Positions 1 through 45,108 of a stretch of 62,802 bases of DNA are shown piece by piece. Position numbers and translations under genes: made by a program. Each line of letters begins with the position of its first letter. The first letter of the stretch is position 1. The stretch comes from a virus: positions 1 to 62,802 of the IMG/VR virus record IMGVR_UViG_3300049726_000091; one strand, written 5' to 3'. Below the pieces are notes generated by a model. That model was not told the origin of the DNA. It saw only the letters and a program-made list of their open reading frames with translations, and did no database searches.

Positions 1-786
1 TATAAAATTTATTATGGAAAATCTGGAAATAGAAAATTATTAAGAGATGATAAAAAATTATATTTAAGTTTATTATACTATACATCTCATTTGAATTTAC
101 TTAATAAAAATTTAAATAAATTATCAATGAGATTATATATATTAATTAATAATATTGATATTTATTGTCACAAGCATAATGTATTAAAATTTTGGAGAAT
201 AAATAAGGGTGAATTTAGTATTATTTGTGGAAAATGTGAACCCAAATATCCATCAATTAATTGGTTTAAAAAAACATATTGTGATAATTGGAATTATTAT
301 TATAATGAACGAAAAGAAAATGTTAAAATAAATAAAACAAATAGTATTGAATGGTTTCAACGTAAATTTGGTACTGAATTAGGAATTATAAAATATAAGG
401 AACATGTAAATATTAAAATGAATAAATTATCAATATTAAAAGCAAATAGATATAGTAAAATTTCTCAAGAATTGTTTTGGAATATATATGATAATATAGA
501 TAATAAGAATAATATATATTTTACCGAATTAAATAAAGAATTTGTATTAAGAATACCAGAAAAATTTAATTATGATAAAACAGTAATGATGTTAGATTTT
601 AAACAAAACAATAAAGTTATTGAATATAACGGTACTTATTGGCATTCGAATGATATTGATGATATTAGATATTCCATATTGAAAGATATGGGATTTGAAA
701 TTATGTTTGTAACTTCAGAAGAATATAATAGAAATAATAAAAATAATGAAATCATTAATAAATGTGTTAAATTTTTACAATGTTAA
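1..786 (+). CDS. Vsr/PD-(D/E)xK-like endonuclease between the terminase halves (5' partial)
   Basis: The frame is open to the window edge, so the N-terminus lies outside; the TTG at 91 is not a convincing start. A zinc-knuckle-like CxKH...CGKC pattern lies near the visible N-terminal third, then a segment (EWFQRKFGTELGI) resembling the repeat units of other endonucleases in this window. The C-terminal third has MLDF followed by VIEYNGTYWH, a D...ExN..YWH arrangement of the Vsr-like branch of PD-(D/E)xK nucleases, as in the endonucleases at 36-45 kb. It ends IINKCVKFLQC and its stop overlaps the start of the terminase C-terminal gene (ATGTTAA), so the two are probably translationally coupled. 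The position, immediately before the C-terminal intein piece, fits a homing-type endonuclease occupying a fractured gene. Nuclease family is fairly clear; homing activity is inferred. Confidence 0.75.
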   Translation, partial: YKIYYGKSGNRKLLRDDKKLYLSLLYYTSHLNLLNKNLNKLSMRLYILINNIDIYCHKHNVLKFWRINKGEFSIICGKCEPKYPSINWFKKTYCDNWNYYYNERKENVKINKTNSIEWFQRKFGTELGIIKYKEHVNIKMNKLSILKANRYSKISQELFWNIYDNIDNKNNIYFTELNKEFVLRIPEKFNYDKTVMMLDFKQNNKVIEYNGTYWHSNDIDDIRYSILKDMGFEIMFVTSEEYNRNNKNNEIINKCVKFLQC

Positions 787-1103
787 TTAATACTGAATAT
801 GAAATATTAAATAATTCAGGAAATTTTGTGGATTTTTTGGGAGTGGAAAAATCGAACAAAAAAAATGGATTAAAAATAACTTTAGAAAATGATATGTCAA
901 TTATTGTTAGTGAAGACCATATATTCATTACAAATAATGTTGATATGTATGCCAAATCATTAATACCAAATGTTGCATATTTAACAACAACAGAAGGAGA
1001 TTTTTATGTTAAATCTGTTGAACCGATAAATGATTGTGAATTTTATGATATTGTTGATAGCGAAGGGTGTGAATATTTTGCAAATGGAATCTTAAATCAT
1101 AAT
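780..1103 (+). other. Split-intein C-terminal fragment (IntC, 108 aa) in TerL
   Basis: It contains the late N-terminal beta strands (EYEILNNSGNFVDFLGV), block B with VSEDHIFIT, and blocks F/G: VKSVEPINDCEFYD, then YFANGILNHN followed by Cys. Block A with the nucleophilic Cys1 is missing; the piece begins with Met. A break shortly after block A is the architecture of atypically split terminase inteins such as AceL-TerL and VidaL T4Lh-1, where IntN is only about 16-25 residues. Confidence 0.85.
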
Positions 1104-2087
1104 TGTTCTTTTTTGGGGTCTGGTGATAATTTTATTGCTAAAGAATATTTAAAACGAATTGAAGAAAATGAAAAACTAATTCCAATTCGTCAAGAATATG
1201 TTGATGGTAATATGTGGATTTGGAAAGACCCTGAAGCAGGTGAAGAATATATTATGGCATTAGATGCCTCTCCGGGTCATGGAGAAGATAATTCAACAAT
1301 AAATATACTTAAAACCATAGAAACTATTGAAGAAAAAATAATAGAAAAAGGTGGTAAAACAAAAAAAATTAAAATAAAAAGGCATAAAGTTGAACAAGTT
1401 GCTGAATATTATGGTAAAGTTACACCACAAATGCTTGCAGAAATAGCATATCAATATGGTAGAAAATATAATAATGCATATTGTGTTGTTGATATTACTG
1501 GTGGTTATGGTGTACAAAGTGTTGAAAAATTATTAGAATTTGGTTATGGTAATGAACATGTTCATTATGCTGAAGTAACACATAAACCAAGTAGAGATAG
1601 ATTACAAGGATATATAAAAAAAGGTCAAAAAATAATGCCAGATGGTACAGTAATTAATGTTGATTTAATTCCTGGATTTTTTATAGGTAATAATCGTGCA
1701 TCAGTTATTTTGGAATTACAAAGAGCTATTCATTTAGAAGATGTTATTATTAGGTCAATTAGATTATTAGAAGAATTAAAAACATTTGTAACTGTTGCTG
1801 GTAATAGGGTTGCAGACCATAAACGTACATTTCATGATGATTCAATTATGGGATTATCAATTGGTTTGTATGTTCTTAATTTTGATATGGCGAGATATAA
1901 ACAAAGTAAAGGAATAACTGAACATATGCTTAATGCCATAATAACCAATAATGATATAAATGAAATGGGAAGAAAAATTGATATAAAAAACAGACCAATG
2001 ATTTCACCTAATAGTGTATCACCATTAAATCCATATGGAGCAAATGCATGGTTATTTGATGGTATTAAAGATAAAAAGAAAATATAG
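780..2087 (+). CDS. terL: Terminase large subunit, C-terminal half preceded by split-intein C-piece
   Basis: The product has 435 residues. Residues 1-108 are a Hint/intein C-terminal piece ending NGILNHN, and residue 109 is the +1 Cys of the C-extein. The C-extein opens CSFLGSGDNFI, as in the gp17 linker to the nuclease domain, and carries RNase H-fold nuclease signatures: MALDAS with G.D nearby (about 160-170), VVDITGG (about 236) and HDDS (about 352). The ATPase domain with Walker A and B motifs is absent, so it must be encoded upstream of the window together with the short N-terminal intein piece. After trans-splicing the nuclease half would join the ATPase half to make the DNA-packaging motor. 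Start is ATG 780, overlapping the endonuclease stop. Terminase identity is firm; trans-splicing is inferred from domain boundaries. Confidence 0.93.
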   Translation: MLINTEYEILNNSGNFVDFLGVEKSNKKNGLKITLENDMSIIVSEDHIFITNNVDMYAKSLIPNVAYLTTTEGDFYVKSVEPINDCEFYDIVDSEGCEYFANGILNHNCSFLGSGDNFIAKEYLKRIEENEKLIPIRQEYVDGNMWIWKDPEAGEEYIMALDASPGHGEDNSTINILKTIETIEEKIIEKGGKTKKIKIKRHKVEQVAEYYGKVTPQMLAEIAYQYGRKYNNAYCVVDITGGYGVQSVEKLLEFGYGNEHVHYAEVTHKPSRDRLQGYIKKGQKIMPDGTVINVDLIPGFFIGNNRASVILELQRAIHLEDVIIRSIRLLEELKTFVTVAGNRVADHKRTFHDDSIMGLSIGLYVLNFDMARYKQSKGITEHMLNAIITNNDINEMGRKIDIKNRPMISPNSVSPLNPYGANAWLFDGIKDKKKI

Positions 2088-2158: not shown

Positions 2159-4207
2159 ATGGCTGAACCAACAAAAAATAAAGGAACAATATATCAAGAA
2201 CTTAATAAAATGATGAATCTTGATGGTTTTGGCTTTCAAGATAATCAATCTACAAGTGTAATGCTACAAGCATCTACACCACCACCTGAAAGAGCAAAAA
2301 TAATAATTAAAGGTAATAGTCCTGAAGAAATTCAAAAAAAGGGTTTGGAGTTGGAACAAAAAAGAGAACTTCAAAATAAATTTTTTAGAACAACTGATAG
2401 GGGTTTTCAAAAAGCACTTCAATATGAAGCAGCAAGACTACCAGCATATATTGATTATGAGGGTATGGAATATTATCCAATTATTAGTAGTGCATTGGAT
2501 TTATTTATGGAAGAAGCAACTACTATTGGTTTAAATGGTAAAATGTTAAATATATATTCTAACAAAGAAAGAATAAAAATGTTGTTGGAAGAATTTTTCT
2601 ATGATATAGTAAATGTTAATGTTAATTTACCTTTTTGGGTAAGAAATACATGTAAATATGGAGATAATTTTGTATTACTTTATGGCGAACGTAAAAAAGG
2701 TATTACACATGTAAAGCAATTGGTAAATTATGAAATTGAAAGGTTTGAAAGAATTCAAAATGGTAAACCACTGGTTAAATTTAAAGAAAGAATGACTGGT
2801 GATGAATTTAATGTTTTTGAAATAGCTCATTTCAGATTACTTGGTGATGATAAATATTTACCATATGGTAGTTCGGTTTTAAATAAAATACGTAGAGTGT
2901 TCAGACAACTTGTAATGGCTGAAGATGCTATGCTTACATATCGTATTATCCGTGCTGGTGAAAAGAAGGTATTTAAAATAGATGTTGGAAATATTGATGA
3001 AGATGATATTGAAGAATATATTTATAAAGTTGCAACTAAATTCAAAAAAACTGCACAAGTAAATCCGAATGATGGTCAAATTGATTATCGTTTTAATATA
3101 CTTGGTAATGATGAAGATTATTTTATTCCTGTTAGAAATGCAAATACTGAAACTGGTATTGATACACTTCCCGGTGCAAGTAATTTAGATGCTATACAGG
3201 ATATAGAATATTTAAGAGATAATTTATTTATAGGTTTAGGTATTCCAAAACCCTTTTTATCATTTCAAGATTCTGCTGGTGCTGGTAAGAATATGGCACA
3301 ATATGATATTAGATTTTCTAAAAAAATAAATCGTATTCAACAAGCCATAATTCAAGAATTGAATAAAATGGCAATGATTCATTTATATTTATTAGGATAT
3401 ACTGGTGAAGATTTAAGTAGTTTCACTCTTACACTTACAAATCCAAGTACTCAACAAGAATTATTGAAATCTGAATTAATGCGTGATAAAGCACAAACAT
3501 ATACAGAATTAACTCGTGCTGAAGGTGGTATTGCAGCTATGTCACATACTACCGCTAAACGAGTACTTTTCAATATGACTGATAGAGAAATTGTTGAAGA
3601 TTTGAAACAACAAAAAATGGAAAAGGTTGTTATGCAAGAACTTCAAGATTCTCCAGTTACAATTAAAAAATCTGGTTTATTTACTGATATTGATAAACGT
3701 TTTGGTTCACCAGAAGAAGGAATGTCAATGTCTGGTACTACTGGTGGTGAAGCTGGTGCTCCACCTATTGGTGGTGCTCCTGCTCCAACAGGTGGAGCAT
3801 TACCTACTGGTGGTGCTCCTGCTCCAACAGGTGGAGCATTACCTACTGGTGGTGGCGCAGGTGCTGGTGCTCCACCTATTGGTGGTGCTCCTGCTGGGGG
3901 GGGTGGTGCTGAAGCAATGATGGAAAATAAAGAACCTAAATTAAGTGAAGAAGAATATAATAAACATATTGAAAAATTAGTATATGGTAGTAGTAAAGAA
4001 ACAGAAATTAAAAAAGAATCAGAACATACACAAATTATTCAAGAAAACAATAAAATTAATGATTCTTTGAATAACAAAGCATTAGATATGATTAATGAAA
4101 TAAATAATTTATTGGAAAATCGTGAAAGTATAAACACTGGACAAAAAATTATTGAAATACAAGATACTGAAATTATGGATATTGAGAACATTGATTTACC
4201 CGAATAA
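2159..4207 (+). CDS. gp20: Portal vertex protein (gp20-like)
   Basis: The 682-residue product forms the dodecameric ring through which DNA enters and leaves the head. Typical T4-portal segments are visible: AYIDYEGMEYYPIISSALDL (about 98-117), FWVRNTCKYGDNFVLLYG (about 158-175), and the clip/stem region with NLFIGLGIPKPFLSF. It follows terL, as in T4-like phages. The C-terminal 160 residues are unusual: a Gly/Pro/Ala-rich repeat (GGAPAPTGGALPT twice, about 538-582) is followed by an acidic helical tail. The repeat DNA is much more GC-rich than its surroundings and contains eight consecutive Gs at 3896-3903, where slippage would change the tail. The canonical T4 portal is about 520 residues, so this tail is an extension. 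Confidence 0.93.
   Translation: MAEPTKNKGTIYQELNKMMNLDGFGFQDNQSTSVMLQASTPPPERAKIIIKGNSPEEIQKKGLELEQKRELQNKFFRTTDRGFQKALQYEAARLPAYIDYEGMEYYPIISSALDLFMEEATTIGLNGKMLNIYSNKERIKMLLEEFFYDIVNVNVNLPFWVRNTCKYGDNFVLLYGERKKGITHVKQLVNYEIERFERIQNGKPLVKFKERMTGDEFNVFEIAHFRLLGDDKYLPYGSSVLNKIRRVFRQLVMAEDAMLTYRIIRAGEKKVFKIDVGNIDEDDIEEYIYKVATKFKKTAQVNPNDGQIDYRFNILGNDEDYFIPVRNANTETGIDTLPGASNLDAIQDIEYLRDNLFIGLGIPKPFLSFQDSAGAGKNMAQYDIRFSKKINRIQQAIIQELNKMAMIHLYLLGYTGEDLSSFTLTLTNPSTQQELLKSELMRDKAQTYTELTRAEGGIAAMSHTTAKRVLFNMTDREIVEDLKQQKMEKVVMQELQDSPVTIKKSGLFTDIDKRFGSPEEGMSMSGTTGGEAGAPPIGGAPAPTGGALPTGGAPAPTGGALPTGGGAGAGAPPIGGAPAGGGGAEAMMENKEPKLSEEEYNKHIEKLVYGSSKETEIKKESEHTQIIQENNKINDSLNNKALDMINEINNLLENRESINTGQKIIEIQDTEIMDIENIDLPE
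3770..3847 (+). repeat. Two perfect 39-base tandem units in the portal gene
   Basis: Units 3770-3808 and 3809-3847 are identical and encode GGAPAPTGGALPT. Partial degenerate copies flank them (3745-3769 and 3848-3905). Confidence 0.9.
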
Positions 4208-21239: not shown

Positions 21240-22388
21240 TTATGTTGAAGAAATTATAGAATTAATTTGATTAGAGATTAGTTTTATATTTTCTTCAATA
21301 TTTTTTAAAAATTCTTTTTCATTTATTCTTATAATATGACAATTATGCATTTCCTTAAGATAATTTTCTTTAATTAAATCACGTTCTTTTTGTCGTTTAG
21401 CATTATGATGTTTTTCATCCCATTCAATACATATATTATATTTCGCAATAAAACCATCAACCCAATATCTTATAAATTTCTTTTCACCACCATTTAATGC
21501 ATGTTGAATTTCTATCCCTAATTTTTCTGATAATAAATCTAAATATATTATTGAATTAGGATTATATTTTGGGGCATGTTTTAACCATAATTCGCCATAT
21601 CTCTCAATCATGGTTGCTGCAATTTTTTCGGAAACCCTTTTATTTTGTGTAGCATATTCAACACCATATTTTTTCAAATAATAAATTTTCATTTTATTTT
21701 TATATTCTTCAGTTTTTGTGTGATGGTCAACACCATATTTAATTAAACAAGTTTTTTTTGATTTTTTTTTAAATTCATTTGTTGATAAAAACCATTCAGT
21801 ATTATACTTTTCCAAATTTCTTTTTTTTGTTTCATTTTTTGATTTTTCTGTTTTATTATATGAATCCATACCATATCTTCTAATATTAGTTTGAATTCTT
21901 TTATTATGAAATTCTTTTGTTTTTGAAAAATGGTCAACACCATATTTTTTTAAATTAGTTTGTTTTGTTTTATTTTTGCATTCATCCGTTTGATTATACC
22001 ATTTTCCATTTTTATATAATTTATTTTTTATTTTTTTCTTAATTTCGTTTGATTTTGATGGATTATCTACACCAAATGTATTTAAACAAGTTTGTTTTAT
22101 TTTATCTTTATGTTGTTCTGATTTATTTAAACAATTAATTGAACAATATTTGTGATATCCAATATTATATTTTTTTAAATGTAATATTTTGTTACAAGAT
22201 ATACATTTAGGGTTTTCAAATAAATTATTAATGTAATTATATAATAATTCATGCCAACTATTTGAATTAGAGAATTCAATAATTTTATTGTATAGGTCAG
22301 GAAAATTATTTTTTATGTGTATTTCTCTTGTTTTATATCCAGATTTATTATTGGTTTCTAAATATACTTTTAATTCTTCACTTTCCAT
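21240..22388 (-). CDS. Homing-type endonuclease: zinc finger, 24-aa repeats, PD-(D/E)xK domain
   Basis: The 382-residue product sits antisense between two neck genes, a typical invader position. Order: N-terminal region; a C4 finger CISCNKILHLKKYNIGYHKYC plus SINC (about 64-88); roughly seven degenerate units of about 24 residues with core [16 protein letters not shown] (about 95-260), probably DNA-contacting; and a C-terminal nuclease, RYWVDGFIAKYNICIEWDEK (about 315-335), giving D...ExDEKHH followed by Q..RD. This differs from the Vsr/Mom-type proteins at 36-45 kb, as it lacks the extra C-terminal domain. Its start overlaps the RHH-like gene by 11 bases. Confidence 0.8.
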   Translation of the reverse strand: MESEELKVYLETNNKSGYKTREIHIKNNFPDLYNKIIEFSNSNSWHELLYNYINNLFENPKCISCNKILHLKKYNIGYHKYCSINCLNKSEQHKDKIKQTCLNTFGVDNPSKSNEIKKKIKNKLYKNGKWYNQTDECKNKTKQTNLKKYGVDHFSKTKEFHNKRIQTNIRRYGMDSYNKTEKSKNETKKRNLEKYNTEWFLSTNEFKKKSKKTCLIKYGVDHHTKTEEYKNKMKIYYLKKYGVEYATQNKRVSEKIAATMIERYGELWLKHAPKYNPNSIIYLDLLSEKLGIEIQHALNGGEKKFIRYWVDGFIAKYNICIEWDEKHHNAKRQKERDLIKENYLKEMHNCHIIRINEKEFLKNIEENIKLISNQINSIISST

Positions 22389-23977: not shown

Positions 23978-24232
23978 TTAAACTTCTTTATTTGATTTTT
24001 TAAAGTGTTTATTTTTTATTTTTTCAAGTTCTTCACAAAGTTTTTTATGTTGTTCTTTTGATTGAATACCTAAATCATCACCATATTCTGAAAATATTGA
24101 AAATGTGAATAATATATATTCTTTTTCTTTATCTGATAAATAAATTCCCTTTTTTGAAAATTGATATAATGCCAAAGCAAGTAATAGAATTATTACTATT
24201 AAGAATCCTATTAATATGTACAATATTGTCAT
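23978..24232 (-). CDS. Small membrane protein (84 aa)
   Basis: An N-terminal hydrophobic segment (residues 3-24, ILIGFLIVIILLLALALYQF) acts as a membrane anchor; the rest is charged and helical and faces one side of the membrane. It overlaps the end of the GIY-YIG gene by four bases (ATGA-type overlap), so it is translationally coupled. No known family. Confidence 0.55.
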   Translation of the reverse strand: MTILYILIGFLIVIILLLALALYQFSKKGIYLSDKEKEYILFTFSIFSEYGDDLGIQSKEQHKKLCEELEKIKNKHFKKSNKEV

Positions 24233-24963
24233 TCAATATAATTATAATTATTAAATTTAGGATTATTTGATTTTAAACGATAAAGTATTGTTGGTATTGG
24301 TATACTTAGTTTATTGTGAGCATCACCAAGTGAAAAATATTCTATATTATCTATTTTAAATTTTATATTTTGTGTTCCATTATATTTACCTTTTCGTTGT
24401 ACGGACATTATTTTTTTGGTATTTTCACTATGTTTTTTATTATAAAACGGATTGTTTTCACCTTTTCTTGGTAAACATTTAATACAATATTTATTTTCTG
24501 GTGCAATTTGCTTACCGCATAAACAATAGTTAATTGATGACCCGCCTTTCCAATTCGGATTTTTTTCCATTGGTCTTGAGAATTTTCTTTTTCTTTCTTC
24601 CGGTGACATATTTTCTATGTTTTTATTAATTTTAAATTTAATTTTATTAATAATTGCCGTTTTATTGGGGTGATTGGTTAAATTATCACCACCGTTTGCT
24701 TGTTTACCAATGTTATATTCAGGATTTATATTTAAATATTTTTGTTCAACAATTAATAATTTATCAATTTCACATTCTTCAATAATTTCAAAAATAAATT
24801 TTTCCTCACCATATTTATTCCATGCTCTTTGTAAATATATGTTTTCATGTCTATTATGTTTTAGTGCTGATTTATGTAAAACCCATCTTCTTTTAATATT
24901 TTTTGCCGAACCATAATAACATTTATTATTAATAATATTTTTAATTCTATATATTCCAATCAT
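24229..24963 (-). CDS. GIY-YIG homing endonuclease (Seg-like) with NUMOD motifs
   Basis: The 244-residue product starts with a GIY-YIG domain: GIYRIKNIINNKCYYGSAKN (GIY and YYG), Arg in IKRRW, and catalytic Glu in VEQKYL (about 73). DNA-binding modules follow: a C4 zinc-binding pair (CLCGKQIAPENKYCIKC), a NUMOD3-like GENNPFYNKKHSENTKKIMS, and a NUMOD1-like helix-turn-helix YFSLGDAHNKLSIPIPTILY at the end. It is free-standing, inserted on the minus strand beside the neck genes, and has its own phage promoter element. Confidence 0.9.
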   Translation of the reverse strand: MIGIYRIKNIINNKCYYGSAKNIKRRWVLHKSALKHNRHENIYLQRAWNKYGEEKFIFEIIEECEIDKLLIVEQKYLNINPEYNIGKQANGGDNLTNHPNKTAIINKIKFKINKNIENMSPEERKRKFSRPMEKNPNWKGGSSINYCLCGKQIAPENKYCIKCLPRKGENNPFYNKKHSENTKKIMSVQRKGKYNGTQNIKFKIDNIEYFSLGDAHNKLSIPIPTILYRLKSNNPKFNNYNYIE

Positions 24964-36360: not shown

Positions 36361-38235
36361 TTAAATATTAATATCAAAAGTTTTTTCAAATTTCATGTTA
36401 CCACAATCATAAATTTTTAAATATCCATTATCATTCATTATTTCAAATTCTGTTTTATTTTTATCAAAACCTTGTTTCATAAGAATATTTTTTCTAAATG
36501 AATATCTATAATATCTTTTAATTTCTTTAATTTTATTATTATAATACCAATAATTTGGCTTAGTATTGCCAATGAAAGTAAATCCCAATTGCTTATATAA
36601 ACCACCTTGACTATACCTTCTATCTGCAAACGTTAAAATTGATTTTGGAGCGTATGTCTTAGTAAAATAGCTAAACAATTTACTTGCCCCACCAATAACA
36701 CTTGTATTAAGTTTATTGCAAAATCTATGCATCTCATACTCTCCTTCAATATTAATTTTATTACCCATAGCAATACGTTTTTTACCAAAAGTCATAACCA
36801 ATACCAAATCATTATTATAAAACAAACCTATTCTAATTTTACTATTAATATTACCTTGTATATGATTATTATTTAAGAAGTTATTACATGTTATATTATT
36901 AATTTCTTTAAGTATTGTTTTTCTTGCAAATATTTTATTCTCAATAATACCTAACTTAGATTTAATTATTGATTTAACAATTTCCTTTTTATTAACCCAC
37001 TCATCTTCAAATATGTGAAGCAGTTGTATGCCTTGTTGTTCACATAAATTAGTTTTGTTAAGGTGATAATTCTTATCTTTATATAATTCTGAATGCCAAT
37101 ATAATCCATTGAACTCAATACCTAATTTATTGTCTGGTAAATAAATATCAATTTCTTTATTATCAATTCGTATTTTTTCTGATTTTATGTTTATTTCATT
37201 ATTAATAAAATCTTTAATTTCGTTTTCTTTAATTGAAACATTTTCAGAAATTGGGTTACATTCAGTACAGACATTTTCTATTTTTTCTCTTAAACGATTT
37301 TTTAATAATGAAATATTTATTGTAAAATTATTATGTTTTTTACATAAATTAGATATAATAAGTTCATCATATATAGTATATTCAACATTATTTTCATTTA
37401 TGTTTAAATTTTTTGCCCATAGTTTTTTATTTTTTATGCGTAATGTCTTTTTAACACTAAGAATAATTTTATTTTTTATTATTGAATTTTGTGATGGAAT
37501 TTTGACACCAAATTTTTTTAAATTTGTTTGTTTGGTTTTTTCTTTAATATTATTATCTTTTAATGTACAATCAACACCATATTTAGTTAAACATGTTTGT
37601 TTTTGTTTTTCCTTATTATTATAATATTCATTACCATATCTTTTATTTTTTGTTTGTTTTGATTTATTATTAATTTGAATATTCTGCATTGGATTTTCAA
37701 CATTATATCGTTTCAAATTGGTTTGTTTTTGTTTCTCTTGTTGAGATTTTAATTTAAGATGATGTTCAACACCATATTTTTTTAAATTAGTTTGTTTTGT
37801 TTTTTCTTTAACACTATCTAATTGTTGCGGATGTTCAATACCATATCTTTCTAAATTGGTTTGTTTTATTTGTTCTTTTTTTTCTTCAGAAAGTAATGTA
37901 TATTTAAATCCAAAGTTTTTTATTGATGTTTTTTCTCTTTTGATTTTAATATTATTGTCTTTTCCAATACATTGCATTGAACAATATTTTGAAAATCCTT
38001 CACTAAATTTTTTAAATCTAACTGGTTTTCCACAAATAATACATAAAGGTATTTCATGAATATCATAAAACAATAAATATAATTTTGCATTAAATGATAT
38101 GGTTGAATTGAATTGATTGTTTATTTGATTAAAAATTTCATTATAATTTTTTTTAAAAAATGATTCTGTTGCTCTTCGTGATATAATATTATTAGTATTA
38201 TTATCAATAATTATATTTTTTATAATATTTTTCAT
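36361..38235 (-). CDS. Homing-type endonuclease: repeats, Vsr-like nuclease, Mom/GNAT-like domain
   Basis: The 624-residue product has, in order: a C4 finger ([21 protein letters not shown], about 64-85); about six 24-residue repeats with core [12 protein letters not shown] (about 120-260); a spacer; a Vsr-like nuclease [20 protein letters not shown] (about 362-382) with LLHIFEDEW; and a C-terminal region of about 200 residues. That last region, with [51 protein letters not shown] and PNYWYY, follows the layout of Mom-type GNAT proteins. It lies antisense upstream of the sheath gene. Nuclease family is sound; the Mom/GNAT assignment is inferred. Confidence 0.75.
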
Positions 38236-41383: not shown

Positions 41384-41423
41384 CATAACCGAATTGGTTA
41401 GTAAAAATATAAATTCATCATAT

Positions 41424-42992
41424 ATGGCAACAATAGTTAATTTAATTTGCAAACATTGTAATAATATTTTTTATGTAAAAAAAGGAAGGGAAAAACAATT
41501 TTGTTCTAAAGATTGTAAATTAGCACATAGAGCACAAGAAGATAATAAATTTTATGTTGAAAAAAAGTGTGAGTATTGTGAAAAGATTTTTAAATCAAAA
41601 AAGAAAGAAAAGAAAAAATTTTGTTCATATAAATGCTCTGGTTTAAATAAAAAGAAAAAATCGAAAGAAAATAGACATTGCTTAATATGTAATAAATTAT
41701 TTATTGAAAGAATAAAATATGAAAGAAAATTTTGTTCTAAAAAATGTAGAGAAATTTGGCAAAGTATTCCAGAAAATAAAGAAATTAGAATTAAAAAGTC
41801 GAAAGAAGCGGTATTTAAAAAATATGGTGTTGATAGTACATTTAAAGTTAATAGTATTAGATTATTAGCAACTCATAATATGAAAAAAACATATGCTACG
41901 CATGGTAATAAAATTATAAATCGTGGTTTAATAAAAGTTCAACTAAATAGAGATAAATTATTAAAGAAAAGATTTTCAGAAAAAGGATATTCAATATTAG
42001 AATTTAATGATGATAATATAAAAGTTTCACATCCTAATGGTCATGTTTTTGAAAACAATAGAAAATTATTAGTAAATAGATTAAATCATGATGTTGAATT
42101 ATCAACAATATTACAACCAATTGGGTCACCAAGAACAACATTTGAATTAAAAATATGTAAATTTTTAAAAAATAATAATATTAATTATATTCCAAATGAT
42201 AGAAAAACAATTGATGGTGAATTGGATATTTATATACCTTCATATAATTTAGCAATTGAAATAAATGGACTTCATTGGCATTCCGAATATTATATAAATG
42301 ACGATTATCATATTAATAAAACAAAAAAATGTGAAGAAAAAAATATTACATTATTGCATTTTTTTGAAGATGAATTACTTGAAAAATATAATATTATTGA
42401 ATCAATGATAAAAAGTAAATTAGGTATTATTAATAATAAAATATTTGCAAGAAAATGTCAAATAAAAGAAATTAATCCTAAAATAGCCTTCGAATTTTTA
42501 ATAAAAAATCATATACAAGGTAATGTTAATGCATCCATTAAATTAGGATTATATTATAACAATGAGTTAGTATCTATTATGACATTTGGAAAATTAAGAA
42601 ACGTTCTTGGTAATAAAATAAAAAATGATAATGTGTATGAAATGTTACGTTTTTGCAATAAACTTAATACTATTGTTGTTGGCGGTGCTAGTAAATTATA
42701 TTCTTTTTTTAAATTAAAATATAAACCATTTAATGTGATTAGTTTTGCTAATAGAAGATATTCAAATGGTAATTTATATAAACAATTAGGATTTAATTTA
42801 AAATATAACACAGCACCTAATTATTGGTATGTTGTTGGAAAGGAAAGAAAACATAGATTTTTATTTAGAAAAGATGTTTTAGTTAAACAAGGATTTGATA
42901 AAAATAAAACTGAACATCAAATAATGTCAGAAAGAAAAATTCCAAGAATATATGATTGTGGCAATATTAAATTTATTGATGTTGGAGCATAA
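41424..42992 (+). CDS. Homing-type endonuclease: triple zinc finger, Vsr-like nuclease, Mom/GNAT-like domain
   Basis: From ATG 41424 (522 residues; an upstream in-frame TTG at 41394 has less support). Three C4 fingers in a row: CKHCNNIFYVKKGREKQFC, CEYCEKIFKSKKKEKKKFC and CLICNKLFIERIKYERKFC (about 10-110). Then one repeat unit, a spacer with a PNGHVFENNR motif, a Vsr-like nuclease (GELDIYIPSYNLAIEINGLH, about 270-290) and the same C-terminal domain as the other two (NHIQGN, VYEMLRFC, VISFANRRYSNGNLYKQLGF). Here FADRR is FANRR, so one catalytic-looking Asp is replaced. The final DVGA copies the sheath ending. Confidence 0.78.
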   Translation: MATIVNLICKHCNNIFYVKKGREKQFCSKDCKLAHRAQEDNKFYVEKKCEYCEKIFKSKKKEKKKFCSYKCSGLNKKKKSKENRHCLICNKLFIERIKYERKFCSKKCREIWQSIPENKEIRIKKSKEAVFKKYGVDSTFKVNSIRLLATHNMKKTYATHGNKIINRGLIKVQLNRDKLLKKRFSEKGYSILEFNDDNIKVSHPNGHVFENNRKLLVNRLNHDVELSTILQPIGSPRTTFELKICKFLKNNNINYIPNDRKTIDGELDIYIPSYNLAIEINGLHWHSEYYINDDYHINKTKKCEEKNITLLHFFEDELLEKYNIIESMIKSKLGIINNKIFARKCQIKEINPKIAFEFLIKNHIQGNVNASIKLGLYYNNELVSIMTFGKLRNVLGNKIKNDNVYEMLRFCNKLNTIVVGGASKLYSFFKLKYKPFNVISFANRRYSNGNLYKQLGFNLKYNTAPNYWYVVGKERKHRFLFRKDVLVKQGFDKNKTEHQIMSERKIPRIYDCGNIKFIDVGA

Positions 42993-43443: not shown

Positions 43444-45108
43444 TTAATAAATTAACATATATTTCATGTTACCACAATCATATATATAATTATATTGATT
43501 TTCTTGCATTATTTCCTTTTCTGTTTTATTTTTATCAAAACCTTGTTTAACCAAAACATCTTTTCTAAATTTAAAACGATAATATCTAATTATTTCATTT
43601 TTTTTGAAATACCAATAGTTAGGTTCAGTATTTTTTATATAATTAAATCCTAATTGTTTATATAAATTACCTTGACTATATCTTCTGTCTGCAAATGTTA
43701 AAATTGACTTAGGTTTATAATTTTTTGTAAAATAACTTAATAACTTACTTGCCCCACCAATAACACTTGTATTAAGTTTATTACAAAATCTGTACATCTC
43801 ATATTCACCTTCAATATTGGTTTTATTACCCATTGCAATACGTTTTTTACCAAAAGTTATAACCGACACTAAATCATTATTATAAAACAAACCAATTTTA
43901 ACCTTAGAATTAATATTACCTTGTATGTGATTGTTATTTAAGAAATTAGAACAAGTTATATTATCAATTTTTTTGATAACACATTTTCTTGCAAAAACTT
44001 TATTTTCAACTATACCTAATTTAGATTTAATAATTGACTTGACAATTTCTTTTTTGTATATCCATTCATCTTCAAAGATATGAAGCAATTGTATGCCTAG
44101 TTGTTCACATTCTTCAGTTTTATTGAGATGATAATTTTTATCTTTAAATAAATTTGAATGCCAATAAAGTCCATCGAACTCAATACCCAATTTATTATCT
44201 GGTAAATATATATCAATTTCATTACCAAACAATATACTTCTATTACCAGTAATATAATTTATATTTAGGGTTTTTAAAAATTCTCTAATTTCAATTTCAC
44301 CAGTTGAGATACTACCACCCAATGGAAGTAATTTTGTTGACAATTCTGCGTTTGTATTAAATCTATTATTAGCAATATGTCTGGGTGTTTCAAAAATGTG
44401 ACCATCTGGATGTTTTATTACAATAATATCATTTTCCAAATAATTTAAAACAATATAATTTCTTTGTTTTATTTTTTTTTCAAAATAATCTTTATTCAGT
44501 TTAGATTTTTTTTGTTTATTTATGGTTAATGATAATGGATTTTCTACACCATATTTAAGGAAATTATTATCTTTTCTTTTATTTTTTATTATTTCTGATT
44601 GGATTGCAAATTCTTTCCCATATTTCAATAAATTTGTTTGTTTTGTTTTTTCTTTAATATCTGGATGTTCAAAGATATTACTAATATTATATTTATTTAG
44701 AATAGTATCACTTCTTTTCTTTTTAAAGATATTGAATTTTAATGGTGAATCAACACCATATTTTTTCAAACAGGTTTTTTTTGCTTTTTCAATTCTAATT
44801 TTACTAGAATTTTTACATTGTTTTGAACAATATGTTAAATAACCTTCACTAAATATACCTCTCCATTTAATATGTATTCCGCAATTATTACATTTAGGAA
44901 TTTCAATTATATTATATAAATAATTATATAATTTTTGTGTAAATGGAAAATCATTTGTTTTAAAAAAATTATCATGATAATTGTTAATTAAATCAATCAA
45001 ACCAATAAATTTAATTAATATGTGTTTTTCTTTTGTTTTATATCCCGAACCATTATTATTTAAAAAATAATTAATTAATTCCGATTTTGATATATTTTTC
45101 TCAATCAT
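43444..45108 (-). CDS. Homing-type endonuclease: Vsr-like nuclease plus Mom/GNAT-like domain
   Basis: The 554-residue product matches the 36361 protein closely in its C-terminal half, down to DNA level. Features: a degenerate N-terminal finger (CNNCGIHIKWRGIFSEGYLT and later Cys), about three repeats (KKTCLKKYGVDSPLKFNIFK), a PDGHIFETPRH motif shared with 41424, a Vsr-like nuclease ([20 protein letters not shown]) and LLHIFEDEW, then [36 protein letters not shown] and PNYWYF. It lies antisense upstream of the tube gene, with which it shares a symmetric promoter region. Confidence 0.77.
   Translation of the reverse strand: MIEKNISKSELINYFLNNNGSGYKTKEKHILIKFIGLIDLINNYHDNFFKTNDFPFTQKLYNYLYNIIEIPKCNNCGIHIKWRGIFSEGYLTYCSKQCKNSSKIRIEKAKKTCLKKYGVDSPLKFNIFKKKRSDTILNKYNISNIFEHPDIKEKTKQTNLLKYGKEFAIQSEIIKNKRKDNNFLKYGVENPLSLTINKQKKSKLNKDYFEKKIKQRNYIVLNYLENDIIVIKHPDGHIFETPRHIANNRFNTNAELSTKLLPLGGSISTGEIEIREFLKTLNINYITGNRSILFGNEIDIYLPDNKLGIEFDGLYWHSNLFKDKNYHLNKTEECEQLGIQLLHIFEDEWIYKKEIVKSIIKSKLGIVENKVFARKCVIKKIDNITCSNFLNNNHIQGNINSKVKIGLFYNNDLVSVITFGKKRIAMGNKTNIEGEYEMYRFCNKLNTSVIGGASKLLSYFTKNYKPKSILTFADRRYSQGNLYKQLGFNYIKNTEPNYWYFKKNEIIRYYRFKFRKDVLVKQGFDKNKTEKEIMQENQYNYIYDCGNMKYMLIY

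What the first reader, a model, noticed from the sequence alone, without database searches (positions are those of the whole stretch)
1..1106. Terminase split by an atypical split intein with an endonuclease gene in the gap
Seen: an ORF starting at 780 has a Hint segment of 108 residues ending NGILNHN before Cys+1, then the terminase nuclease domain; there is no ATPase domain and no block A Cys1. An endonuclease gene ends exactly at this start (ATGTTAA). Known: AceL-TerL and VidaL T4Lh-1 inteins in T4-like terminases have short IntN and long IntC pieces, and endonucleases can sit between halves of fractured genes. Inference: the ATPase half plus a short IntN lies upstream and the two products trans-splice. 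The endonuclease is in the Vsr-like group, the group reported in fractured-gene loci. This would be a new member, in a probable Bacteroidetes phage.
Basis: partly seen in the sequence, partly recalled or inferred. Interest (0 to 1): 0.9.

Follow-up and report, generated by a model that had tools for sequence, protein, structure and literature searches.

The report
Split terminase joined by split intein
This virus of bacteria carries its DNA-packaging motor gene in two pieces with a DNA-cutting enzyme gene between them, and the two protein pieces carry matching halves of a self-splicing element that should join them into one working motor; it is a new example of a known arrangement, with relatives that suggest how such gene breaks arise.

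Summary
Window 780-2087 encodes a 108-residue intein C-fragment (ending LNHN), then Cys+1 and the terminase (TerL) nuclease domain; the record starts inside an endonuclease ORF whose stop overlaps that ATG. The missing part was found: contig L031, identical to the window over 10,084 bp, has upstream a 398-residue TerL ATPase half ending in a Cys-led 40-residue fragment, then the 386-residue endonuclease. The IntC family profile matches CatC (consensus AceL/GOS-TerL), gp41-1 and VidaL; the endonuclease matches I-Bth0305I and Vsr. Near relatives have the uninterrupted gene; two others share the 1,611-bp insert with one mismatch while their TerL halves differ by about 20%: recent homing. In 79 distinct endonuclease+IntC modules none is one continuous chain, though the nuclease may be free or fused to either half; six continuous mini-inteins of the class hold no such nuclease. 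So the N-proximal 'atypical' split site appears to be a nuclease site, but split forms without a detected nuclease also occur. Trans-splicing is inferred, not shown. New member of a known kind.

The parts
1..786 (+). C-terminal 261 codons of an EDxHD/Vsr-like homing endonuclease gene (386 aa in L003 6847-8007); 5' end outside the record
   Evidence: open frame; identical to L003/L031; profile hit to I-Bth0305I 3r3p E 1.8e-5; predicted fold of the catalytic part matches 3r3p Z 10.0 and Vsr 1cw0 Z 9.3
780..786 (+). ATGTTAA: IntC start codon overlapping the endonuclease stop (7-nt overlap, -1 frame)
780..1103 (+). IntC, 108 residues, of an atypical (N-proximally) split intein; block B ..SEDH.., C-terminal His-Asn
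   Evidence: phmmer to gp41-1 6qaz; family profile A5 to CatC 6dsl E 4e-18, gp41-1 E 1.6e-17, VidaL 6vgv E 5e-11
1104..1106 (+). Cys+1, first residue of the C-extein; native residue in intein-free TerL
   Evidence: Cys at this position in 9 of 10 uninterrupted loci whose junction was read (not in the distant L060)
1104..2087 (+). TerL nuclease domain (C-extein) with stop
   Evidence: weak Terminase_6C E 0.022; weak hit to terminase large subunit 3c6a E 0.0032; 60-91% identical to the nuclease part of 43 of 45 uninterrupted TerL loci
2159..4207 (+). portal protein gene (context, packaging module)
   Evidence: phrog_213 portal E 2e-51

Best explanation
A T4-type terminase large subunit gene interrupted by a mobile, atypically split class-1 intein. 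The ATPase half ends in a 40-residue IntN (shown in identical contigs); an EDxHD/Vsr-like homing endonuclease gene lies in the break; the nuclease half starts with a 108-residue IntC (in the window). Inferred steps: the three ORFs are made from one transcript, the last by translational coupling through the ATG/stop overlap; IntN folds into the larger IntC; Cys1 attack, transfer to Cys+1 and Asn108 cyclisation ligate QELM-CSFLGSG and restore full-length TerL. The endonuclease cuts intein-free terL alleles at this site, and repair copies the whole IntN-nuclease-IntC unit.
For: N-half, IntN and endonuclease found in DNA-identical contigs. IntC family profile's best PDB hits are CatC and gp41-1, with VidaL fourth. 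terL is uninterrupted in 45 of 61 loci, including L012/L013, about 90% identical; junction read in 10 of them. Cys1 40 of 40 modules with IntN found, terminal Asn 79 of 79, penultimate His 78 of 79, +1 Cys/Ser/Thr 79 of 79 distinct modules. Purifying selection: median dN/dS IntN 0.40, endonuclease 0.31, IntC 0.17, exteins 0.17 and 0.125 (14 loci, 91 pairs). L008 keeps IntN and IntC although its endonuclease has decayed to about 100 codons. Mobility: at least 12 presence/absence changes on the TerL tree, 8 forced by starred branches; L004 and L007 differ at 1 of 1,611 insert bases but at 25 of 150 and 32 of 150 flanking bases. No second terL in four contigs tested.
Against: No protein or splicing data. 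The structure model of IntC plus nuclease was poor (pLDDT 46), so the Hint fold rests on sequence profiles. The joined window-phage IntN+IntC matched gp41-1 only over the IntC part and did not reach CatC. dS was not computable for up to 12 of 91 pairs (IntC). Intein presence is more clustered on the TerL tree than in shuffles (12 changes against a mean of 17; 2 to 3 of 500 as low), and in 94 of 105 pairs of intein-bearing loci the endonuclease is less, not more, conserved than the exteins, so most of its history looks vertical or old. Homing is inferred from sequence, not from nuclease activity. Contigs may be incomplete.
Confidence: 0.92

Rival explanations
1. Two-subunit terminase: the halves assemble non-covalently and work without splicing (genes in pieces).
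For: A ribonucleotide reductase gene split by a nuclease gene that works as two peptides is mentioned in PMC10448857 (passage); no splicing data here.
Against: Splicing residues are kept, IntN and IntC are under purifying selection and survive nuclease decay in L008, which a non-splicing tail would not need.
Confidence: 0.04
2. Programmed -1 frameshifting at the endonuclease end makes one long precursor that splices in cis.
For: IntC lies in the -1 frame of the endonuclease in 23 of 23 loci; a U UUU UUA-type heptamer is present in 7 of 23.
Against: No slippery heptamer in 16 of 23 loci, including the window's phage; an IntC ATG overlaps the end of the endonuclease frame in 23 of 23 (in L008 of its remnant); in 8 of 23 loci, the window's phage among them, IntN ends at its own stop before the endonuclease, so a frameshift there cannot give one chain.
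Confidence: 0.03
3. The interruption is removed at RNA level as a group I or II intron carrying the endonuclease.
For: Nucleases distantly related to EDxHD/Vsr occur in phage group II introns (PMC12350094, passages).
Against: No Rfam family above its gathering score in the 17.3-kb L003 locus; the three weak hits at E<=1 are not introns. Coding frames with intein motifs run to both borders.
Confidence: 0.01
4. Assembly artefact or dead gene remnant.
For: The window record is truncated inside the endonuclease.
Against: The same endonuclease/IntC junction is in six other near-identical records (L001, L002, L003, L011, L031, L032), four of which (L001, L003, L011, L031) also hold IntN, and the same layout is in 22 further loci (some near-copies; L008 with a decayed nuclease); frames are open and under selection.
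Confidence: 0.01

Closest known systems
AceL-TerL and GOS-TerL split inteins, and their engineered consensus Cat (PDB 6DSL)
   Same: same host gene; short Cys- or Ser-led IntN (25 and 37 aa as quoted in PMC11766414, passages) and long IntC (104 aa for Cat); IntC profile's best PDB match is CatC
   Different: IntN is 40 aa here; an endonuclease ORF occupies the break; whether those metagenome loci also carried one could not be read (papers not held)
VidaL (PDB 6VGV)
   Same: atypically split intein (recalled), matched by the IntC profile at E 5e-11
   Different: weaker match; its very short IntN (about 16 aa) is recalled, not read here
Fractured genes (Dassa et al. 2009)
   Same: gene halves with split-intein pieces and a free Vsr-related endonuclease gene between them (recalled; paper not held)
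   Different: gp41-1-type members are split at the canonical site (recalled); here the break and nuclease are at the N-proximal site
Aeromonas phage PX29 gp17A/gp17B; Providencia phage PSTRCR_127; Serratia phage 92A1
   Same: same terL position, short IntN and long IntC
   Different: nuclease is GIY-YIG type: by annotation and fused to IntC in PX29, free in the other two (SegE_GIY-YIG E 7e-6, and 0.0024, under its cut-off)
Vibrio phage Va1
   Same: same terL position, IntN of 32 aa, nuclease of the same family (29% identity)
   Different: nuclease fused in frame to IntC
Vibrio phage EniLVp02
   Same: same terL position, short IntN and long IntC in two overlapping ORFs
   Different: no nuclease in the break
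I-Bth0305I (EDxHD homing endonuclease, PDB 3R3P) and E. coli Vsr
   Same: catalytic domain
   Different: I-Bth0305I is a mobile-intron protein; the His that is invariant here aligns with Ala in 3R3P

Membership tests
Atypically split TerL inteins (AceL/GOS-TerL type) | Short IntN beginning with the nucleophile, at the end of the terminase ATPase half | tested here: met
   40-aa Cys-led tail in L003, L031, L011
Atypically split TerL inteins (AceL/GOS-TerL type) | Long IntC with His-Asn end and Cys+1 before the nuclease half | tested here: met
   window 780-1106
Atypically split TerL inteins (AceL/GOS-TerL type) | Sequence kinship to the known members | tested here: met
   profile A5 to CatC 6dsl_B E 4e-18; single-sequence search reached CatC only weakly with the L008 sequence (E 0.48) and not with the sequence of the window's phage
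Atypically split TerL inteins (AceL/GOS-TerL type) | Protein trans-splicing activity | not testable with these tools
   needs expression
Fractured gene with split intein | Host gene broken at the intein, endonuclease gene between the halves | tested here: met
   L003 5639-9308: ATPase-IntN, endonuclease, IntC-nuclease
Fractured gene with split intein | Intein-free alleles exist at the same position | tested here: met
   45 of 61 loci uninterrupted, 14 with intein, 2 undetermined
EDxHD/Vsr-like homing endonucleases | Catalytic-domain sequence and fold | tested here: met
   3r3p E 1.8e-5; Z 10.0 to 3r3p, 9.3 and 8.2 to Vsr entries 1cw0 and 1vsr, within residues 272-386; Foldseek alone ranked 3r3p second at E 0.065 and gave no match at E<=0.001
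EDxHD/Vsr-like homing endonucleases | Named motif residues E, D, H, D | tested here: inconclusive
   E305, D324, E333, H340, D345 and R348 are invariant or nearly so in A4, but H340 aligns with Ala in 3r3p
EDxHD/Vsr-like homing endonucleases | Site-specific cleavage driving homing | not testable with these tools
   only sequence footprints of homing
Group I or II intron with HEG | Intron RNA structure at the borders | tested here: not met
   no intron family matched in L003

The most novel reading that the evidence does not exclude
The N-proximal ('atypical') split site of inteins is a second natural homing-endonuclease site, and the nuclease's presence there forces the chain to be broken: a nuclease-free continuous mini-intein becomes an atypical split intein when a Vsr-like or GIY-YIG nuclease enters the N-proximal loop. 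The nuclease may be free (window), fused to IntN, fused to IntC or decayed, but never lies in one continuous chain (0 of 79 distinct modules), while six continuous mini-inteins of the same class hold no Vsr-like nuclease. Split forms without an adjacent Vsr-like nuclease (30 of 40 further IntC rows) would be later losses or other nucleases. This contradicts the printed statement that all intein nucleases sit at one conserved site (PMC6801210) and would explain where atypical split inteins come from.
Probability: 0.55. Interest if true: 0.75.

Novelty: new member of a known kind. Interest (0 to 1): 0.6.

Why it matters
It supplies a complete natural atypical split intein with its nuclease, its empty site in near relatives and, in other members of the family, a footprint of recent homing, in the phage's packaging motor gene. 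The family of 79 distinct modules gives a ready panel of short-IntN split inteins (unfused IntN 23-57 aa), which are wanted for protein labelling. It also makes an open question testable: why homing nucleases in inteins are said to sit at a single site, and how atypical split inteins arise. If a nuclease at the N-proximal site blocks cis-splicing, joining IntN-nuclease-IntC in one chain should fail where the split form succeeds.

Tried and rejected
Structure of IntC plus nuclease (A6): mean pLDDT 46, not used for any fold search. The alignment A5 was too diverse for a collection scan, so three narrower alignments (A7-A9) were scanned instead. Two alignments failed because L091 coordinates ran over a stop; L091 was then left out of A6; it was also not in the dN/dS set. 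Pfam gave only sub-threshold hits for the endonuclease and for the window's 435-aa ORF, so those family calls rest on profiles against the PDB. Frameshifting, RNA intron, non-covalent halves and assembly artefact were considered and rejected for the reasons given under rivals.

Limits of the counts: the 79 modules come from scans seeded mostly with the nuclease, and the scan kept the best 80 of 120 confirmed relatives, so they are not a random or full sample of inteins. IntN was found in 40 of 79, and the IntN profile begins with Cys, which favours Cys-led hits; for L139 and L160 the Cys lies two residues before the hit and was counted. Rows that failed the IntC filter were dropped (146 rows, 138). 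Against the causal reading: 40 further IntC rows had no adjacent Vsr-like nuclease; 10 of them run on in one ORF (100 aa or more upstream) and 30 begin within 82 residues of an ORF start, that is, look split without such a nuclease (among them L008 with its decayed one, L064 and L065 with GIY-YIG, L067 with none, and L103/L122 whose second nuclease fell under my filter). The six continuous mini-inteins were bystanders in the same loci, and one (L119 5602-6051) rests on an IntN hit at E 20; the Fisher p of 2e-9 ignores shared ancestry. dN/dS is Nei-Gojobori. The TerL tree is a quick search with 17 of 48 inner branches open and near-copies among its 61 rows. After this recount I lowered the probability of the novel case from 0.6 to 0.55 because of the 30 rows.

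Papers: passages only of PMC11766414, PMC6801210, PMC10448857, PMC12350094, PMC3943268, PMC6892783, PMC8228797, PMC7090010, PMC12707363; search listings. Dassa 2009, Bachmann and Mootz 2015 and a third paper (PMC4133565) were not held; what I say of Dassa 2009 and of VidaL's IntN is recalled. In what I saw of those papers nothing describes a nuclease at the N-proximal site of an intein, but I read no paper whole and the library lacks most subscription journals; PX29's own record already notes a GIY-YIG nuclease with a C-intein.

Full report
What is there. The window is a whole IMG/VR record of 62,802 bp. Its left end starts inside an open frame (1-786) that ends in the TAA of ATGTTAA; the ATG at 780 opens a 435-residue ORF. 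Residues 1-108 are the C-terminal part of an intein: residues 9-108 align with residues 29-128 of the gp41-1 intein chain (E 5e-6), with a SEDH block and a C-terminal LNHN, followed by Cys and the terminase nuclease domain (weak hit to 3c6a, E 0.0032). The portal gene follows. The record has no terminase ATPase match.

The missing half. A scan of viral contigs gave 61 loci. L031 is identical to the window over 10,084 bp; L003 matches in two stretches, 3,815 of 3,815 and 6,321 of 6,322 bases, the break being a repeat-length difference in the portal gene; L032, L002, L001 and L011 also match. In L003, L031 and L011 the upstream gene is a 398-residue terminase ATPase protein (Terminase_6N E 4e-8) ending QELM|CVGKDSLITIKNKKTGIIETLEIFKFYDKLNEQNNSCEYL, followed by a 386-residue endonuclease ORF and the window's ORF. 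One ATPase match and one nuclease match occur in each of the four contigs tested (L003, L031, L008, L010), including the 348,923-bp one; none is known to be complete.

The empty site. Of the 61 loci, 14 have the intein, 45 have an uninterrupted terL and 2 are too short to tell. In L012 and L013, about 90% identical in both exteins, the site reads QELMCNFLGSG; removal of the intein from L003 gives QELMCSFLGSG. Of ten uninterrupted junctions read, nine have Cys at the +1 position; the distant L060 does not.

What family. A profile of 24 IntC sequences from this and related loci (A5) finds the consensus atypical TerL intein CatC (6dsl_B, E 4e-18), gp41-1 (1.6e-17 and 2.2e-15) and VidaL (5e-11) at the top of the PDB. 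With single sequences the CatC hit was weak (L008, E 0.48) or absent (pair of the window's phage). The endonuclease profile finds I-Bth0305I (3r3p, E 1.8e-5) and, weakly, Vsr (E 2.3 and 2.4). A model with mean pLDDT 84.7 aligns within residues 272-386 with 3hrl (Z 10.4), 3r3p (10.0), 1cw0 Vsr (9.3) and 1vsr (8.2), though mitoribosomal and FASTK chains also reach Z 9; Foldseek alone ranked 3r3p second at E 0.065 and gave nothing at E <= 0.001.

Is it functional. Across 14 loci (91 pairs) median dN/dS is 0.40 for IntN, 0.31 for the endonuclease, 0.17 for IntC, against 0.17 and 0.125 for the exteins. In L008 the endonuclease has decayed to about 100 codons while IntN and IntC are intact, which fits a need for the intein halves but not for the nuclease. 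No Rfam intron family is matched in L003.

How the third ORF is translated. In 23 of 23 loci of this layout IntC lies in the -1 frame of the endonuclease, with its ATG overlapping the endonuclease end by 1 to 10 nt (L008 by its remnant frame). A slippery heptamer is present in 7 of 23 and absent from the window's phage. In 8 of 23, the window's phage included, IntN also ends at its own stop before the endonuclease; in the other 15 IntN runs on in frame into the endonuclease. Translational coupling is the simplest reading; this is inference.

Mobility. On a tree of 61 TerL exteins, intein presence needs at least 12 changes, 8 of them forced by starred branches; shuffled labels need 17 on average and only 2 to 3 of 500 shuffles are as low, so presence is patchy but not random. 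L004 and L007 have IntN+endonuclease+IntC differing at 1 of 1,611 bases, yet 25 of the 150 bases before and 32 of the 150 after the insert differ; the nearest differences lie 16 bases before Cys1 and 18 bases after the last insert base, and the extein halves are 80.7% and 78.8% identical. The whole unit has moved recently, with almost no flanking conversion. L004 against L009 and L005 against L010 show the same tendency over all three parts; in L083 against L084 only the endonuclease is more alike (91% against 74-79%). In 94 of 105 pairs the endonuclease is less alike than the exteins, so recent transfer is seen in few pairs.

A general pattern. Five scans (the fourth capped at 80 of 120) and a profile search of all loci held gave 138 strong endonuclease+IntC rows, 79 distinct at under 95% IntC identity. 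IntN was found in 40: 30 have both junctions broken (the window's phage among them), 8 have IntN fused to the endonuclease with the IntC junction broken, 2 (Vibrio phage Va1, L099) have the endonuclease fused to IntC with the IntN junction broken, none is continuous. In the other 39 the endonuclease/IntC junction is broken in all. Unfused IntN pieces are 23-57 aa, median 36 (32 loci). Cys1 is present in 40 of 40, terminal Asn in 79 of 79, penultimate His in 78 of 79, and Cys, Ser or Thr at +1 in 79 of 79. Eighteen modules are at the window's terL position and 23 of the 40 IntN follow a Walker A ...GK; others sit in a DnaB-like helicase (L100) and an SbcC/gp46-like ATPase (L114) by my reading of the sequences. 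L103 has two such split inteins with their endonucleases in one terL. PX29, Providencia PSTRCR_127 and Serratia 92A1 have the same break filled by GIY-YIG-type nucleases, PX29 already annotated as N-intein and C-intein. By contrast six continuous inteins of this class (130 to 179 aa) have no Vsr-like nuclease inside, one of them (L216 6020-6409) at the window's own position. Against a simple rule, 40 further IntC rows had no adjacent Vsr-like nuclease and 30 of these look split; EniLVp02 is a cultured case with no nuclease in the break.

What this suggests. A 2019 structural paper states that all nuclease domains in inteins are at one conserved site and argues that an insertion in the symmetry-related N-terminal loop would clash with the exteins (PMC6801210, passages). 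Here nucleases of two families occupy an N-proximal loop, before residue 29 of the gp41-1 chain by the alignment; I did not test whether it is the very loop named there. In all 79 modules the chain is broken on at least one side. The natural reading is that a nuclease at this place is tolerated only in a split intein, so that atypical split inteins are the product of nuclease invasion, with later loss of the nuclease in some. The sample was seeded with the nuclease and rows share ancestry, so this is a strong lead, not proof.

Verdict. It is a new member of a known kind: the fractured-gene arrangement (Dassa 2009, recalled; the paper is not held) and atypical TerL split inteins (PMC11766414, passages). 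The wider pattern is the more interesting part.

Noticed in passing
window 43444-45108 (-) and 41394-42992 (+): Two ORFs join a Vsr/MTES_1575-like endonuclease domain to a Mom-like DNA-modification domain (Mom E 1e-7, over cut-off, and E 6e-6, just under): possibly nucleases that carry their own protection.
   Followed up: no
window 21240-22388 (-), 36361-38235 (-), 24229-24963 (-): Three more homing-type endonucleases: two DUF7487 + MTES_1575 (the latter under its cut-off), one GIY-YIG with I-TevI zinc finger and NUMOD3.
   Followed up: no
L103 4019-9656: One terL broken twice, each break an atypical split intein with its own endonuclease, plus a further apparent continuous intein in the nuclease part; the second IntC ends Lys-Asn instead of His-Asn.
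   Followed up: partly
L216 4700-7294: terL with one split intein followed by two continuous mini-inteins of the same class (138 and 130 aa).
   Followed up: partly
L008 5008-7950 and 9374-13771; L014 1114-4413: L008 terL has a second, continuous intein with LAGLIDADG_3 at about ATPase residue 260; the portal genes of L008 and L014 appear, by eye, to carry two continuous inteins each.
   Followed up: no
L083 5001-6161 and L084 2731-3891: Endonuclease DNA 91% identical while IntN, IntC and exteins are 74-79% identical: looks like exchange of the nuclease alone.
   Followed up: no
window about 3800-3820; L003 10984-11036: Portal repeat (PTGGAL-type) differs in length by 39 bp (682 against 669 aa) between the window/L031 and L003, otherwise nearly identical DNA.
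   Followed up: no
L066 3995-5164 (Vibrio phage VP-1): IntC at the same terL position begins upstream of the annotated gene start; a tail that by eye looks GIY-YIG-like is fused to the IntN half.
   Followed up: no
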